Source: Streptomyces sp. Edi2 (GTDB lineage Bacteria; Actinomycetota; Actinomycetes; Streptomycetales; Streptomycetaceae). Taken from it: a DNA stretch of 64,000 bases. The position numbers and the translations under genes were made by a program. This document shows, piece after piece, positions 38,999 through 44,165 of this stretch. The notes beneath the pieces are model-generated. The model ran no database searches. It was not told the DNA's origin and worked only from the letters and a program-made list of their open reading frames with translations. How positions within the stretch are numbered: position 1 is the first letter of the stretch; each line of letters opens with the position of its first letter. Location of the stretch: the NCBI RefSeq assembly GCF_040253635.1, contig NZ_JBEJGX010000003.1, positions 248,001 through 312,000 of the forward strand. Reading direction: 5' to 3'.

Positions 38999-39450
38999 CG
39001 AACCTCCTGCAAGGGGACACCCGTGTGGGACGCCCAAAAACCGGACACCCGGCCGGTTTGACCGGGCCCCCACAGATTGACCGCCCGTCACCCCTTGGTG
39101 GAGGAAATCCATTTTGGTGTGACAAAACGCAGACATATACACAACCACATCACGCCAGGCGCGCACGCCCCGGCGCTCACACTGCCGCCCACAACGCCCC
39201 TTACACGTATCCGGCCTGGGGACCGGTGGGCCCGCATGGCGAGGGGTTCGCGTATTCCAAGAGAACCGCCAAGGAGCAAGGAGCAAGGAACCAGAAGTTG
39301 GTTGCCACCCCCGCCGCTCCCCCAACTCAGGTGTCCGGTCGGTCACTTCGGCATCATTCGTTGCCTGTGGCCTCTGGAGCATCTACGTTGAGCGCGCCTG
39401 AATTCAGCTCAGCCCGCCGCTTCTGCGTCGGGCTTCGGGAGGGACCCCAC
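38999..39450. other. Divergent intergenic region between LTD protein and M64 peptidase genes
   Basis: 452 bp; holds both promoters. GGAGCAAGGAGCAAGGAA near 39274 is a short direct repeat (AGGAGCA). No regulator dyad or convincing ORF was seen. Confidence 0.4.
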
Positions 39451-40791
39451 ATGCGCTCACGCACCTCCACCGACATCTGCAGACGCTTTTCCCTACGCAC
39501 CGCGGTGACCGCCGGCCTCGCCGCGGCGGCGCTGGCTGCGACGGCCGCCGCGGCCACGGCAGCCCCAGCCCAGGGCGCCGTCACCCCGCCCCCGCACGGA
39601 AACCGCACCCAACAGGTCGAGTACTTCACCGGAGCGGCCGGTCACCCCCGGCACACCACCGTCCCGGCCTCGAAACCGGTCTCCCCCTCCGACAGGGCCG
39701 CGATCGCCGGCGACGGCGACGTCACCTCGATCGTGCAGAACGGCCCGGTCGGCGCCAAGCTCGATGTGGTCTTCGTCGGGGACGGCTACACCACCGCCCA
39801 GCAGGAGGACTTCCACGCGGACGTCCGCGCCAAGTGGGCCAAGATCTCTGCCGTCGAGCCCTATGCCTCGTACGCCGGACTGTTCAACGTCTGGGCCGTC
39901 GACGCCGTCTCCAACGAGTCCGGCGTCTCCGGGGACCCGACGCAGGACGTGGTCCGCGACACCGCCCTCGACTCCGCCTTCTTCTGCGACGGCACCGAGC
40001 GGCTGCTGTGCGTCGACACCGGCAAGGTCGAGGCGTACGCCTCCAAGGCCCCCGCGGCCGACCTCGTCGTGGTGCTCGCCAACTCCACCAAATACGGCGG
40101 CGCGGGGTACAACGACATCTCCTCGCAGGTCGGTTACGACGGGATCGCCACCGCCTCCTCGGACAACGACCGGTCCGACCAGATCGCGGTGCACGAGACG
40201 GGCCATTCACTCGGCAAGCTCGCCGACGAGTACGACTACGGCCAGTCCGGCACCTACTCCGGCCCCGAACCGGCCGAGGCCAACCTGACCACGCTCTCCG
40301 CCGACCAGATGACCGCTCAGCGGCAGAAGTGGTACCGCTGGATCGGCCAGGAATCGCCGGACGGCGGAGCGGTCGGCGCGTTCGAGGGCGGCGGCTACTA
40401 CCAGTACGGGCTCAACCGCCCCACCGAGAACTCGATCATGCGGACACTCGGCCAGAAGTTCAACCTCCCCGGCCGCGAGGCGATGATCGCGGGCTTCTAC
40501 CGCTATGCGAGCGTGCTGAGCAGCACCGTGGCCACCGACCGCGCCATACCGCGCAGGACGCGCCTCCATGTCGGCGCACCCGCCTCCGCAAAGGTGACGT
40601 GGTATGTCGACGGCCGCGAGCGCAGGGCCGCACGCGGCAGGTACACGGTCGTGGTGCGGGCCCTCGGCGTCCCGGCCGACGGCCGCACCCATACGGTCAC
40701 GGCCAGGGCCACCGACCGTACGGCTGCCGTCCGTGACCCGGCACTGCGCAAGCAGCTCTCCGGGAAGCTGAGCTGGCGGGTCTCCCCCTGA
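39451..40791 (+). CDS. Secreted M64-family zinc metallopeptidase
   Basis: A 446-residue secreted peptidase (M64, IgA-peptidase family). Signal peptide about 45 residues with an Ala-rich core. The zinc and catalytic site is HETGHSLGKLADEY, with His248, Glu249 and His252 and the metal Asp259. The C-terminal 120 residues form a beta-rich domain beginning at PRRTRLHVGAPAS. RBS GGGAGGG upstream of the ATG. It should be exported and Zn-dependent; the substrate is unknown. Convergent with the sigma-CAP gene. Confidence 0.9.
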   Translation: MRSRTSTDICRRFSLRTAVTAGLAAAALAATAAAATAAPAQGAVTPPPHGNRTQQVEYFTGAAGHPRHTTVPASKPVSPSDRAAIAGDGDVTSIVQNGPVGAKLDVVFVGDGYTTAQQEDFHADVRAKWAKISAVEPYASYAGLFNVWAVDAVSNESGVSGDPTQDVVRDTALDSAFFCDGTERLLCVDTGKVEAYASKAPAADLVVVLANSTKYGGAGYNDISSQVGYDGIATASSDNDRSDQIAVHETGHSLGKLADEYDYGQSGTYSGPEPAEANLTTLSADQMTAQRQKWYRWIGQESPDGGAVGAFEGGGYYQYGLNRPTENSIMRTLGQKFNLPGREAMIAGFYRYASVLSSTVATDRAIPRRTRLHVGAPASAKVTWYVDGRERRAARGRYTVVVRALGVPADGRTHTVTARATDRTAAVRDPALRKQLSGKLSWRVSP

Positions 40792-41204: not shown

Positions 41205-42803
41205 TCAGCGCGGTGCCGCGAGGTCCTGGGTCCACCAGGGCCCGCCCGCTCCCTGGACGACACCGATGCCGACCGATGTGAACTTGCAGTTCAGCAAGTT
41301 GTCGCGGTGCATGGCGTCGCCCATCCAGTCGTTCACCGCCGCGGCGGCAGTGCGCGGGCCCCGGTCGAGGTTCTCGCCCCAGCTGCTCCACTGATATCCG
41401 GCGGCGGTGATCCGCTCGTCGGGGCCGGTGCCGTCCGGGGCGTTGTGCTCGTAGTACTGACGTGCCGCCATGTCGGAGGAGTGGCGCCGCGCCGCGGTGT
41501 GCAGTCTCCGGTCGATGTGCAGCGGCCCGCAGCCGGCCCGGGCCCGCCGGCGGTTGATGAGCGAGGTGGCCTGTTCTTCCAGGCTGGGCGGGGCGGGGGT
41601 CGGCCGGGCGGACGGGGTGGGCGAGGCGGTGGCGGTCCGCGACGGGGTCGGGGTGGGTGTGGGGGTGGGAGTGGGTGTAGGGGTGGGGTCCGGCGTCGGC
41701 GGGGGTGAGGGCACGGTACGGGCCGCCTTCGGCTCGGCCCTCCGTTCGTCCTTCCGCTCGGCCGGCGGCGTAGCGGTCGACCACCACAAGGCGACGGTGA
41801 CGGCCACGGCGAGCGTGGCGGTACCCGTTACGGCAGTGCCCTTCTTCACTCGGCGGGGCCGGGGAAGCCGCTTCGGCAGTGGGTGTGAGCCGGGCACACC
41901 GGATGCTCCGGGTACTCCGGACGCCCCGGACGCCCCGGACGCCCCGGACGCCCCGGACGCCCCGGGCACAGGGTGCGCAGGCGCCGCGGTCGCCGACGCC
42001 GTTGCGGCGGTGGGGGCCAGGGCGGCCGGCGGAGCGAGGTGCGCAGGCAGCGGCAGCAGGGCGAGGCCGGCCAGCAGTCCTTCCGCGGGCAGGAGGTCGT
42101 TCCAGTGCCCGGAGCAGGCCGCGCACCGGCGGGCATGGCGGGATATGCGTTTGCGCCACAGGGCGCAGGGTTTGTTGTCCCACGTGACGGTCACCTGGGC
42201 CAGCTCGGGACATGGGGGACTCGCCGAGAGCGCACGGACCACCACGCGCCCGGCCTCCAGCTGCTCCTTCATCCGCTGCACCCGCACCGCCGCGTGGCGG
42301 GAGTCGATGCCGACGGCGGCGACCAGCTCCGGCCTGGTGATCTCCCCGGCGGCCTCCAGCCACCACAGGGACAGCAGTGACCGGTCCCCCTCGTCCAGCC
42401 ACCGGGTGGCCGCGGCCACTTCACGACGCTGGCCGGACAGTCCGAGTTTCAGGATGGTCAGGTCCACGAAATCGGCGGAGCGGTCGGCCCGTTCCGGCGC
42501 CTGGTCCCAGCCGACAACGGGCGTCTTGCGGTCGGCGGTCCACCGGCGGCGCACCTGGTTCATGGCGATCGCCACCAGCCAGGAGCGGAAGGAGGCCGGC
42601 TCCCGCAGGTCGGACAGCGACTCCAGGACGCGCAGCATGGTCTCCTGCACCACGTCGTCGACGTCCGCATGGCCGTCCAGTGCACGTCCCACGACGTTGT
42701 AGATCAGCGGCAGGTAGGAGGCGATCAGCTCCTCCCGGGCATGTTCGTCCCCGGCCTTGGCGGCCTCGACAGCCGCCGTCCCGTTTTCCTGCTTCACGCC
42801 CAT
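41205..42803 (-). CDS. Membrane-spanning ECF sigma factor fused to an extracellular CAP domain
   Basis: One 532-residue chain. Residues about 15-90 are sigma region 2 (HADVDDVVQETMLRVLESL), about 120-185 are region 4 (ITRPELVAAVGIDSRHAAVRVQRM). H223-A-R-R-C227-A-A-C230 is a HX3CX2C zinc anti-sigma motif. GASGAS repeats (281-306) precede one membrane segment (about 322-342), then a (PT)n linker and a CAP/SCP domain (about 408-530) with His441, Glu452, Glu477 and His499 in place. Orientation implies sigma inside and CAP outside. It probably works by regulated release or sequestration. ATG at 42803 has AGGA upstream. Confidence 0.88.
   Translation of the reverse strand: MGVKQENGTAAVEAAKAGDEHAREELIASYLPLIYNVVGRALDGHADVDDVVQETMLRVLESLSDLREPASFRSWLVAIAMNQVRRRWTADRKTPVVGWDQAPERADRSADFVDLTILKLGLSGQRREVAAATRWLDEGDRSLLSLWWLEAAGEITRPELVAAVGIDSRHAAVRVQRMKEQLEAGRVVVRALSASPPCPELAQVTVTWDNKPCALWRKRISRHARRCAACSGHWNDLLPAEGLLAGLALLPLPAHLAPPAALAPTAATASATAAPAHPVPGASGASGASGASGASGVPGASGVPGSHPLPKRLPRPRRVKKGTAVTGTATLAVAVTVALWWSTATPPAERKDERRAEPKAARTVPSPPPTPDPTPTPTPTPTPTPTPSRTATASPTPSARPTPAPPSLEEQATSLINRRRARAGCGPLHIDRRLHTAARRHSSDMAARQYYEHNAPDGTGPDERITAAGYQWSSWGENLDRGPRTAAAAVNDWMGDAMHRDNLLNCKFTSVGIGVVQGAGGPWWTQDLAAPR
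41917..41961. repeat. 9-bp tandem repeat inside the sigma-CAP gene
   Basis: CCGGACGCC is repeated five times exactly and encodes the Gly-Ala-Ser linker repeats before the membrane segment. Copy number may vary among strains, changing linker length. Confidence 0.75.
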
Positions 42804-43238
42804 TCATCCTGTTCATTCGTGCGTACTCGTAGCCCCCGCACTCAGGTGACCCCGCGAGCCCGTCGCAATAACAGAAAAACCTACGTGGATCCGGGAAGCG
42901 GCCGGGCGCCGGGCCACGCGCGGGGCTCAGTCCGGTGCCGGCGGCTCGGCCACGCGCCGCGGCAGGCGGCCCGCGGCATGACCGCTGAGGCGTTGCTGCA
43001 CGACTGCCGAAGGGCGCGGCACAACCGTTGAACAGGAGCAGAGCGACCCGGCACGACCGCCGAAAAGGCCGCTGAGGGGGCTGCCAATGGCGCCACCGAG
43101 CAGGCCGCGAAAAATTCTTGCGAGCTTTTCGTTATCGGGCCCCGCCCCCGGGCTCTCCCATGTGTCGGCCCCCACGGACCACGCGCCACGCGGCACCACC
43201 CGGCCGGCAGATCCCCAGCCCCCACAGGAAACGGAACC
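42804..43238. promoter_or_regulatory. Divergent promoter region between sigma-CAP and CAP genes
   Basis: 435 bp. AT-rich pockets stand out in GC-rich DNA: CAATAACAGAAAAACCTACG near 42866-42885 on the sigma side, and AAAAATTCTTGCGAGC near 43110-43125 on the CAP side. These are the probable promoters. An autoregulated ECF promoter would be expected at one or both, but no motif can be confirmed by eye. Confidence 0.45.
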
Positions 43239-44165
43239 ATGAACAACGACCACCTGCAGACGGAGTTCCACGACGAGGCCCCGACGGAGGGCGGCCGCCG
43301 GGCGAACGGCTCCGCCGCACCCGGGCGTTCCGGCTCGTCCGGCCCCGGCGGCCGCTCGGGAGGCCGGCACGGACGGAACGGCGGTCAGCACCGCGGCGGC
43401 AGCCATCCCCGGCGGAAGGCGACACTGATCGCGGTGGCCTCGGTGATCGTCGTGGGCGCCTCCGGCGTGGCGCTGATACGTCCCGACTCCGGGACCGACC
43501 AGGCGCTCGCGGCAGACCAGTCCGCACCGGCGGCCCCGACCGCGACGACCTCCACTCCCCCGGCGCCGACCGCCTCGCGCCCGTCCAAGAGCCAGAAGCC
43601 GTCGGCCTCCCCGTCCAAGGCGAAACAACACGCCAAGCCGCACTCCACGCCCCGGCCGCACACCTCCCGCACCGGCCACAGCGCGGACACCGCCAAGAGC
43701 GCAGAGCCCCGCGCGGCCCGCCCCGAGTCGGCAACGGGGGACTCCGCCCCGGCCGGGACCCGGGCCGCGACAGGCACCGCCGCGGCGTTCGCGCAGAAGA
43801 TCGTCGAGCTGGTCAACGCCCAGCGGGCGCAGCACGGTTGTGGTCCGCTCAGCGTCGACTCCCGGCTGCAGGCCGCGGCGCAGGCCCACTCGGACGACAT
43901 GGCCGCCCGCAACTACTACGAGCACAACACCCCGGAGGGCGTGGACCCGGGAACCCGGATGACCAAGGCCGGTTTCCCGTGGGGTAGTTGGGCCGAGAAC
44001 ATCTTCAAGAGCCCCAAGGACCCGTCGACGGCGATGAAGGGCTGGATGGACAGCCCGGGCCACCGCGACAACATCCTCAACTGCTCCTACAAATCCACCG
44101 GGGTGGGCGTCAACCTCAGCGCCAACGGCCCGTGGTGGACCCAGGACTTCGCCACCCACTCCTGA
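43239..44165 (+). CDS. Membrane-anchored extracellular CAP/SCP-domain protein
   Basis: A 308-residue protein, paralogous in its last 120 residues to the CAP domain of the sigma fusion. The first 60 residues are cytoplasmic, basic and Gly-rich; one membrane segment spans about 61-80; a Ser/Pro/Lys linker runs to about 180; the CAP domain then has His217, Glu228, Glu253 and His275. The chain ends in GPWWTQDF, as does the sigma fusion. GGAAACGG precedes the ATG. It is divergent from the sigma gene, hence a candidate partner or target. Confidence 0.9.
   Translation: MNNDHLQTEFHDEAPTEGGRRANGSAAPGRSGSSGPGGRSGGRHGRNGGQHRGGSHPRRKATLIAVASVIVVGASGVALIRPDSGTDQALAADQSAPAAPTATTSTPPAPTASRPSKSQKPSASPSKAKQHAKPHSTPRPHTSRTGHSADTAKSAEPRAARPESATGDSAPAGTRAATGTAAAFAQKIVELVNAQRAQHGCGPLSVDSRLQAAAQAHSDDMAARNYYEHNTPEGVDPGTRMTKAGFPWGSWAENIFKSPKDPSTAMKGWMDSPGHRDNILNCSYKSTGVGVNLSANGPWWTQDFATHS

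What the first reader, a model, noticed from the sequence alone, without database searches (positions are those of the whole stretch)
41205..42803. One-chain membrane sigma factor: ECF core, zinc anti-sigma motif, TM and extracellular CAP domain
A single reading frame joins sigma regions 2 and 4, a HX3CX2C zinc anti-sigma motif (H223, C227, C230), one membrane span and a complete CAP/SCP domain with His441, Glu452, Glu477 and His499. Normally sigma and anti-sigma are separate proteins and the sensor is the anti-sigma's outer part. Here the signal could pass straight from a CAP domain to a tethered sigma. Some ECF groups have C-terminal extensions; I know of no described CAP sensor of this kind.
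Basis: partly seen in the sequence, partly recalled or inferred. Interest (0 to 1): 0.92.

Follow-up and report, generated by a model that had tools for sequence, protein, structure and literature searches.

The report
One-chain sigma factor with CAP receptor
This Streptomyces-type gene codes for one protein that carries a gene switch inside the cell and a CAP-domain sensor outside, and it probably turns on itself and the neighbouring gene for a free-standing copy of that sensor, so it gives a way to find out what bacterial CAP domains detect.

Summary
The 532-aa frame at 41205-42803 (- strand) is real: sigma region 2, sigma region 4, a zinc anti-sigma (ZAS) motif, one membrane span, a Pro/Thr stalk and a CAP domain. 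It is not a frameshift: 70 of 74 aligned rows, window included, carry the sigma-CAP fusion. One-chain sigma/anti-sigma proteins with an outer domain are known (ECF48/52/53, IutY), so this is a new variant of a known kind. I found no described CAP version in the listings seen; two key classification papers were not held.

New here: a promoter, GTTATC-N16/17-NTCTCC, lies in 77 of 79 upstream regions (relaxed pattern) and in the window also before the divergent stand-alone CAP gene (43239-44165). The same chassis carries other outer domains (AbfB, GH99, GH catalytic core, ricin, beta-helix). Two paralogs on one contig are 63% identical through the membrane span but end in ricin versus CAP. Best reading: a ligand-triggered membrane-tethered sigma controlling itself and its neighbour. 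Ligand, proteolysis and inhibition are inferred.

The parts
41205..42803 (-). sigma-ZAS-TM-CAP gene, 532 aa
   Evidence: ORF; Pfam/NCBIfam; 70 of 74 aligned rows, window included, with CAP and all 74 with sigma region 2
42525..42728 (-). sigma region 2, residues 26-93
42249..42413 (-). sigma region 4, about residues 131-185
   Evidence: TIGR02937 match 21-183; VIA alignment to SigW over model residues 4-188; no Pfam region 4 hit
42054..42218 (-). zinc anti-sigma (ZAS) segment, about residues 196-250, likely ligands C198, H223, C227, C230
   Evidence: four columns invariant in 74 of 74 and in 107 of 107 chassis proteins; no Pfam zf-HC2 hit in this protein
41889..41963 (-). Gly-Ala-Ser collagen-like repeat, residues 281-305, between ZAS and TM
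   Evidence: Pfam Collagen E 0.0033, below cut-off
41784..41840 (-). predicted membrane span, residues 322-340
   Evidence: hydropathy and family charge bias; helix 327-340 in model
41589..41783 (-). Pro/Thr-rich stalk, predicted extracellular, residues 341-405
   Evidence: sequence; mostly low pLDDT
41223..41564 (-). CAP/SCP domain, residues 414-527, with H453, E477, H499
42845..42873 (-). predicted promoter of the sigma-CAP gene, TGTTATT-N16-GTCACC (family consensus GTTATC-N16/17-NTCTCC)
   Evidence: only match to TGTTATYN{15,17}TCWCC in the 9.8 Mb genome, backwards control 0
43131..43158 (+). predicted promoter of the divergent CAP gene, GTTATC-N17-TCTCC
   Evidence: one of 5 matches to GTTATCN{15,17}TCTCC in the genome, backwards control 0; conserved in sister loci
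43239..44165 (+). partner gene: stand-alone CAP protein, 308 aa, one N-terminal hydrophobic segment (exported or membrane-anchored, not resolved), stalk, CAP
   Evidence: Pfam CAP E 1e-25; a divergent CAP gene in all 8 of the nearest scan relatives

Best explanation
The protein is a membrane-tethered ECF-like sigma factor that carries its own zinc anti-sigma domain and an extracellular CAP receptor on a Pro/Thr stalk. At rest the ZAS helices hold the sigma inactive at the membrane. When the CAP domain meets its ligand (unknown; a lipid or envelope component is likely from what CAP domains elsewhere bind), the chain is cut or rearranged and the sigma part binds RNA polymerase. It then starts transcription at GTTATC-N16/17-NTCTCC promoters: its own, and in this lineage that of the adjacent stand-alone CAP gene, whose product is roughly the outer half of the receptor without the sigma. 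That product either acts on the same ligand or competes for it and damps the signal. Shown: the architecture, its conservation, and the shared conserved promoter-like sequence. Inferred: orientation, inhibition, ligand, proteolysis, use of the promoter by this sigma, and the feedback role.
For: Fusion kept in 70 of 74 aligned rows, window included. Strong hits to the sigma-ZAS part (E < 1e-40) in 26 of 31 genus genomes, own included. Likely ZAS ligands invariant. Family charge bias puts sigma inside. Promoter: of 79 upstream regions (window plus 78 loci; L016 had too little DNA), 77 have the relaxed pattern and 71 the strict one; mono-shuffle means 0.33 and 0.065; reversed-string control 0. 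6 also match strictly on the other strand, which fits the divergent CAP promoters. A relaxed form lies upstream of 18 of 30 extra CAP genes in 122 loci (L100 and L101 were fetched because a CAP gene was listed there) against about 0.28 expected, in divergent, tandem, downstream and convergent layouts, and once, strictly, far from the sigma gene before a CAP gene in genome G018. The 5 of 31 genomes without a strong sigma hit have 0 strict-pattern matches; all 33 lie in 20 of the other 26. Sister sigmas with another outer domain were found in 7 genomes; these 7, and none of the other 24, have the element before alginate-lyase-like or L209-type genes. Four AbfB-sigmas have a GH10-GH62 gene (L096, L172) or an annotated arabinofuranosidase (L094, L095) downstream. 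In the full-length model sigma regions 2 and 4 align together to anti-sigma-bound SigW and CnrH (rmsd 4.9 and 4.2 over 147 and 146 residues) better than to the RNAP complex 6jbq (24.6 over 143).
Against: 12 of 30 extra CAP genes, ten of them in the convergent clade and two about 3.7 kb away, lack a recognisable element. Most sigma-CAP loci have no extra CAP in the stretch seen (30 of 122 loci have one). The 14 sigma-CAP genes fetched from the second family (GTDB code f3) lack this promoter. Own-genome promoters deviate (GTTATT..GTCACC; CGTTATC..CTCTCC), and the strict pattern has 0 hits there. The closed sigma arrangement is weak evidence: pTM is 0.37, other anti-sigma complexes align poorly over both regions (4nqw rmsd 10.4 over 145), and the sigma-ZAS model alone (pTM 0.55) aligns to SigW over only 94 residues and to 1or7 at rmsd 10.8 over 161. 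Of 9 AbfB-sigmas, L097 is followed by a beta-helix protein and the other four were not scanned. Nothing here tests proteolysis, ligand or sigma activity.
Confidence: 0.58

Rival explanations
1. Redox or metal switch: the ZAS motif senses thiol or zinc stress in the cytoplasm, as RsrA does (recalled), and CAP is only a wall anchor or stabiliser.
For: Invariant C198, H223, C227, C230 with the spacing of ZAS proteins such as ChrR and RsrA (recalled).
Against: The outer domain is strongly conserved and differs with neighbouring genes (AbfB beside GH10-GH62 in L096 and L172, CAP beside CAP), which a cytoplasmic switch does not explain.
Confidence: 0.15
2. Self-sensing: the stand-alone CAP protein is the signal. 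CAP-CAP contact reports the density of CAP proteins in the envelope and the circuit is positive or negative homotypic feedback.
For: The partner CAP is beside the sigma in several arrangements and often shares the promoter (18 of 30).
Against: Most sigma-CAP loci have no extra CAP in the stretch seen; other outer domains are sugar-binding or sugar-cleaving types, which suggests ligand sensing.
Confidence: 0.15
3. The promoter element is read by another sigma or regulator; the one-chain protein controls other genes.
For: No binding data; the 14 sigma-CAP genes fetched from the second family lack the element.
Against: 0 of 5 genomes without a strong sigma hit have the strict element, 20 of 26 with one do; it is in 77 of 79 upstream regions of the scan set.
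Confidence: 0.15
4. The protein is a degenerate or non-functional fusion.
For: Four aligned relatives lack a CAP match through frame breaks or a transposase, and L150 also ends out of frame.
Against: Strong conservation of both ends and of the promoter over many species.
Confidence: 0.03

Closest known systems
ECF52, SCO4117 of Streptomyces coelicolor (PMC5826349, passages)
   Same: One chain: sigma, zinc finger, TM, Pro-rich stalk, extracellular ligand domain; proposed release by proteolysis
   Different: Carbohydrate-binding domain (smart00776) instead of CAP. An ECF52-like protein in a sampled genome (L178: sigma2, weak sigma4, zf-HC2, NPCBM) matches the query sigma-ZAS part at only 24.7%
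ECF53 and ECF48 (PMC8999054 and PMC10766802, passages)
   Same: C-terminal anti-sigma plus TM extension; some ECF53 have GH or CBM domains, which fits the sister proteins found here
   Different: No reference sequence or model was available, so membership is untested; no CAP domain is mentioned in the passages seen
SigI-RsgI of Clostridium thermocellum (PMC12203970, abstract start in search listing)
   Same: Substrate-sensing membrane anti-sigma factors, several for different substrates, with intramembrane cleavage
   Different: Sigma and anti-sigma are two proteins; sigma-I is another sigma type (recalled)
IutY (ECF243) of Pseudomonas putida (PMC8999054, passage)
   Same: Sigma and anti-sigma fused in one chain, freed by intramembrane proteolysis (experimental, per the passage)
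   Different: Iron-siderophore cell-surface signalling, no CAP named
CAP/SCP proteins (4ifa, 4d53, GAPR-1, Pry1)
   Different: The solved examples are not described as sigma fusions in the listing

Membership tests
ECF-type sigma-70 factor | regions 2 and 4, family model over cut-off | tested here: met
   TIGR02937 59.3 bits against a cut-off of 42.9, residues 21-183; fold; Pfam region 4 itself not hit
ZAS anti-sigma domain | zinc ligand motif with HX3CX2C and an upstream fourth ligand | tested here: met
   C198-x24-H223-x3-C227-x2-C230 invariant in 74 of 74 and 107 of 107; zinc binding itself not tested
ZAS anti-sigma domain | match to Pfam zf-HC2 or to a solved ZAS fold | tested here: inconclusive
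   no zf-HC2 hit at E 1; the fold listings barely cover this part
CAP superfamily | Pfam PF00188 over cut-off, alpha-beta-alpha fold, conserved His/Glu/His | tested here: met
ECF52 | carbohydrate-binding (NPCBM) C-terminal domain | tested here: not met
   CAP is found instead; the ECF52-like comparison protein L178 has NPCBM
ECF52 | sigma sequence of the group | tested here: inconclusive
   24.7% identity to one ECF52-like protein; no group model available
ECF53 / ECF48 | match to the published group model or reference protein | not testable with these tools
   no such model or reference sequence at hand; the two papers looked up are not held
SigI-RsgI | separate anti-sigma protein RsgI with sigma-I | tested here: not met
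   one chain

The most novel reading that the evidence does not exclude
Actinobacteria use one single-chain receptor chassis (sigma, built-in anti-sigma, membrane span) on which the outer domain is swapped for CAP, arabinan-binding, ricin, glycosidase-like or beta-helix modules. Each version drives genes that act on the ligand it senses. The CAP version drives a sigma-less copy of its own outer half, so that CAP domains are true signal receptors with built-in feedback.
Probability: 0.45. Interest if true: 0.78.

Novelty: new variant of a known kind. Interest (0 to 1): 0.62.

Why it matters
What bacterial CAP domains do is largely unknown (recalled). Here a CAP domain is wired to a transcription output with a predicted promoter and target, so a reporter strain could screen for its ligand. 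The wider chassis, with interchangeable outer domains that in several cases go with nearby or co-occurring target genes, offers a general way to predict what each sensor detects, and ready-made parts for engineered one-protein receptors.

Tried and rejected
Frameshift or sequencing error joining two genes: rejected (70 of 74 rows with the same fusion). The four rows without CAP (L038, L044, L047, L074) have broken frames or a transposase. CAP fixed to this sigma as the only sensor: rejected after sampling by the sigma end alone; 23 of 39 genes in the genus sample and 15 of 40 in the order sample carry CAP. The rest carry other domains, or end early or out of frame (L150, L174, L252, L260), and one is masked (L170). 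A single origin of CAP on this chassis: the first tree allowed one (support 91), the larger one needs 3 changes and starred branches force at least 2. Sensor homologous to its target in every class: not so; only CAP sensors matched a target (CAP) below E 1e-3, and neither the L162-168 sensors nor the AbfB or GH99 ones matched the targets given. A CAP partner everywhere: not so (30 of 122 loci). Own-genome extra promoter hits: of 5 matches to GTTATCN{15,17}TCTCC, 2 lie inside ORFs, 1 has no long ORF after it, 1 is 182 bases before a 351-aa frame (L088; no family scan run), and 1 is the partner CAP. Own-genome CAP loci L001, L003 and L004 have no element in the fetched DNA. Rows left out: the loci scan kept 80 of 182 relatives, one (L073) without a sigma hit; of window plus 79, 74 went into A1 (six cut by contig ends left out), 48 into A2 and 44 into A3. 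The first tree used 40 of the 79 scan relatives and 37 of 39 genus-sample genes, and counted L150 as CAP although its end is out of frame. The second tree left out L252, L260, L178, L150, L176, L177 and 15 further rows to thin it. Of 56 strong hits, 40 were fetched. No match to a solved ZAS domain was listed for the ZAS part, which the listings barely tested. Odds of the best explanation were lowered from 0.60 to 0.58 on re-reading.

Full report

Conservation. A scan of one genome for each of 84,980 species gave 182 relatives, of which 80 were kept, from Streptomyces, Kitasatospora and Streptantibioticus; some search patterns came from the CAP part, so this set is biased towards CAP. 79 of 80 encode the sigma end. 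Of 74 rows scanned (window included), 74 have Sigma70_r2 and 70 have CAP. To remove the bias I searched with the sigma-ZAS part alone: 26 of 31 genus genomes (own included) have at least one strong hit (E < 1e-40), 40 genes in all. Of the 39 other than the window's, 23 carry CAP. In 31 genomes of the order, strong hits also occur in all 14 genomes of a second family, coded f3. I fetched 40 of those 56 strong hits, 36 from f3 and 4 from the window's genus; 15 carry CAP, 14 of them in f3. In the window's own genome this is the only strong member; the next matches are at E 2.7e-6 or weaker and look by eye like other ECF sigmas without this extension.

Other outer domains on the same chassis. AbfB, GH99 and beta-helix; Glyco_hydro_cc, Pel9A-like beta-helix and AbfB; ricin, GH99, Glyco_hydro_cc and AbfB; and unassigned ones (L162-168 type, L227, L231). 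All four likely zinc ligands are invariant in 107 of 107 aligned chassis proteins. On the sigma tree the labels cluster: 11 changes against a minimum of 8 and a shuffled mean of 38.8 (quick method, SH-aLRT only; near-copies make such clustering easier). Two paralogs on one contig, L239 and L242, group with support 99; they are 63% identical over residues 1-367 and then differ, ricin versus CAP. This is a direct case of sensor exchange. AbfB-sigmas L096 and L172 are followed by a GH10-GH62 gene, and L094 and L095 have an arabinofuranosidase annotated downstream; L097 is followed by a beta-helix protein, and the other AbfB-sigmas' neighbours were not scanned.

Promoter. Aligning the intergenic DNA of the nearest relatives showed the same element before both divergent genes. 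Of 79 upstream regions (window plus 78 loci), 71 match GTTAT[CT]-N15-18-TCNCC and 77 a relaxed form; mono-shuffles give means of 0.065 and 0.33, the reversed string 0, and 6 match strictly on the other strand, in line with the divergent CAP promoters. The spacer to NTCNCC is 16 in 64 and 17 in 13. In the genus sample the relaxed pattern precedes 30 of 39 chassis genes; the 9 without it are L145 (which has a GTTATG variant), L154, L161, L169 and L171-L175. Genome-wide, TGTTATCN{16,17}RTCTCC has 33 matches in 31 genomes and 0 for the pattern read backwards. 21 of the 33 are just upstream of a chassis sigma (19 read, 2 by coordinates). The other 12 precede one CAP gene, five alginate-lyase-like genes (one in a locus fetched later, L216) and six L209-type genes. 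Pfam was run on one member of each: L210 Alginate_lyase, L213 CAP, L209 only a weak PATR repeat below its cut-off. The five genomes without a strong sigma hit have none; 20 of the other 26 do (one-sided hypergeometric about 0.003 by hand, ignoring kinship). The alginate-lyase-like and L209-type sites occur in exactly the seven genomes in which I found an L162-168-type sigma. In the window genome the strict pattern has 0 matches, but TGTTATYN{15,17}TCWCC has exactly one, the sigma promoter, and GTTATCN{15,17}TCTCC has five, one being the partner CAP promoter. The 14 f3 sigma-CAP genes fetched do not have the element.

Partner CAP gene. Window 43239-44165, divergent from sigma. A divergent CAP gene is there in all 8 of the nearest scan relatives and in S. 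angustmyceticus. A convergent layout occurs in another clade (10 loci), and tandem layouts in L044, L100 and L101. Of 122 loci, 30 have an extra CAP; 18 of these have a relaxed element upstream of it, against about 0.28 expected (L100 and L101 were chosen because a CAP gene was listed); 12 do not. The partner has one N-terminal hydrophobic segment (read from the sequence), so it may be secreted or anchored.

Mechanism. See the best explanation. In the full-length model the two sigma regions align together to anti-sigma-bound SigW and CnrH better than to the RNAP complex 6jbq, but pTM is 0.37, 4nqw fits poorly (rmsd 10.4), and the sigma-ZAS model alone (pTM 0.55) does not repeat it (SigW over 94 residues, 1or7 at rmsd 10.8). 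This is only a hint. CAP ligands are taken from eukaryotic work seen in search listings (sterol binding); nothing here identifies the bacterial ligand.

Comparison with the known. One-chain tethered sigmas are described: SCO4117/ECF52 (PMC5826349, passages), ECF48/53 and IutY (PMC8999054, passages), and GH or CBM domains in some ECF52/53 (PMC10766802, passage). An ECF52-like protein (L178; sigma2, weak sigma4, zf-HC2, NPCBM) is only 24.7% identical to this sigma-ZAS part, so this is not ECF52 by outer domain. Whether it is ECF53 could not be tested; the two papers looked up are not held. Searches for a CAP-bearing sigma gave none in the listings seen: 20 of 95 papers, 0 of 0, 20 of 194, open-licence papers only. 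SigI-RsgI of clostridia works alike with two proteins (PMC12203970, abstract start in search listing).

Verdict.

Noticed in passing
L162-L168 with targets L209-L212, L214-L216: Sister one-chain sigmas with an outer domain unknown to Pfam (L162, L164 scanned) share the promoter with alginate-lyase-like and L209-type genes; the two co-occur in exactly 7 of 31 genomes.
   Followed up: partly
L239 and L242: Paralogous one-chain sigmas on one contig with ricin versus CAP outer domains, 63% identical up to the stalk.
   Followed up: partly
L026, L028, L037 (gene after sigma): A secreted-looking protein gene, Peptidase_C1 in L028 by Pfam, has the same promoter just downstream of sigma-CAP genes with a divergent CAP; a related gene is near 11 loci in all.
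   Followed up: partly
41889-41963: Gly-Ala-Ser collagen-like repeat on the predicted cytoplasmic side, between the zinc motif and the membrane span.
   Followed up: no
39025-40791: M64-type peptidase gene converging on the sigma-CAP gene; also next to it in S. angustmyceticus (L092).
   Followed up: no
L038, L044, L047, L150, L074: Family copies broken after the zinc or membrane part (possibly assembly errors), and one (L074) interrupted by a transposase.
   Followed up: no
L218 (G000:C3:240000-248200): Another stand-alone CAP gene about 48 kb from the partner CAP in the same genome; no promoter element was found in its fetched DNA (L001).
   Followed up: partly
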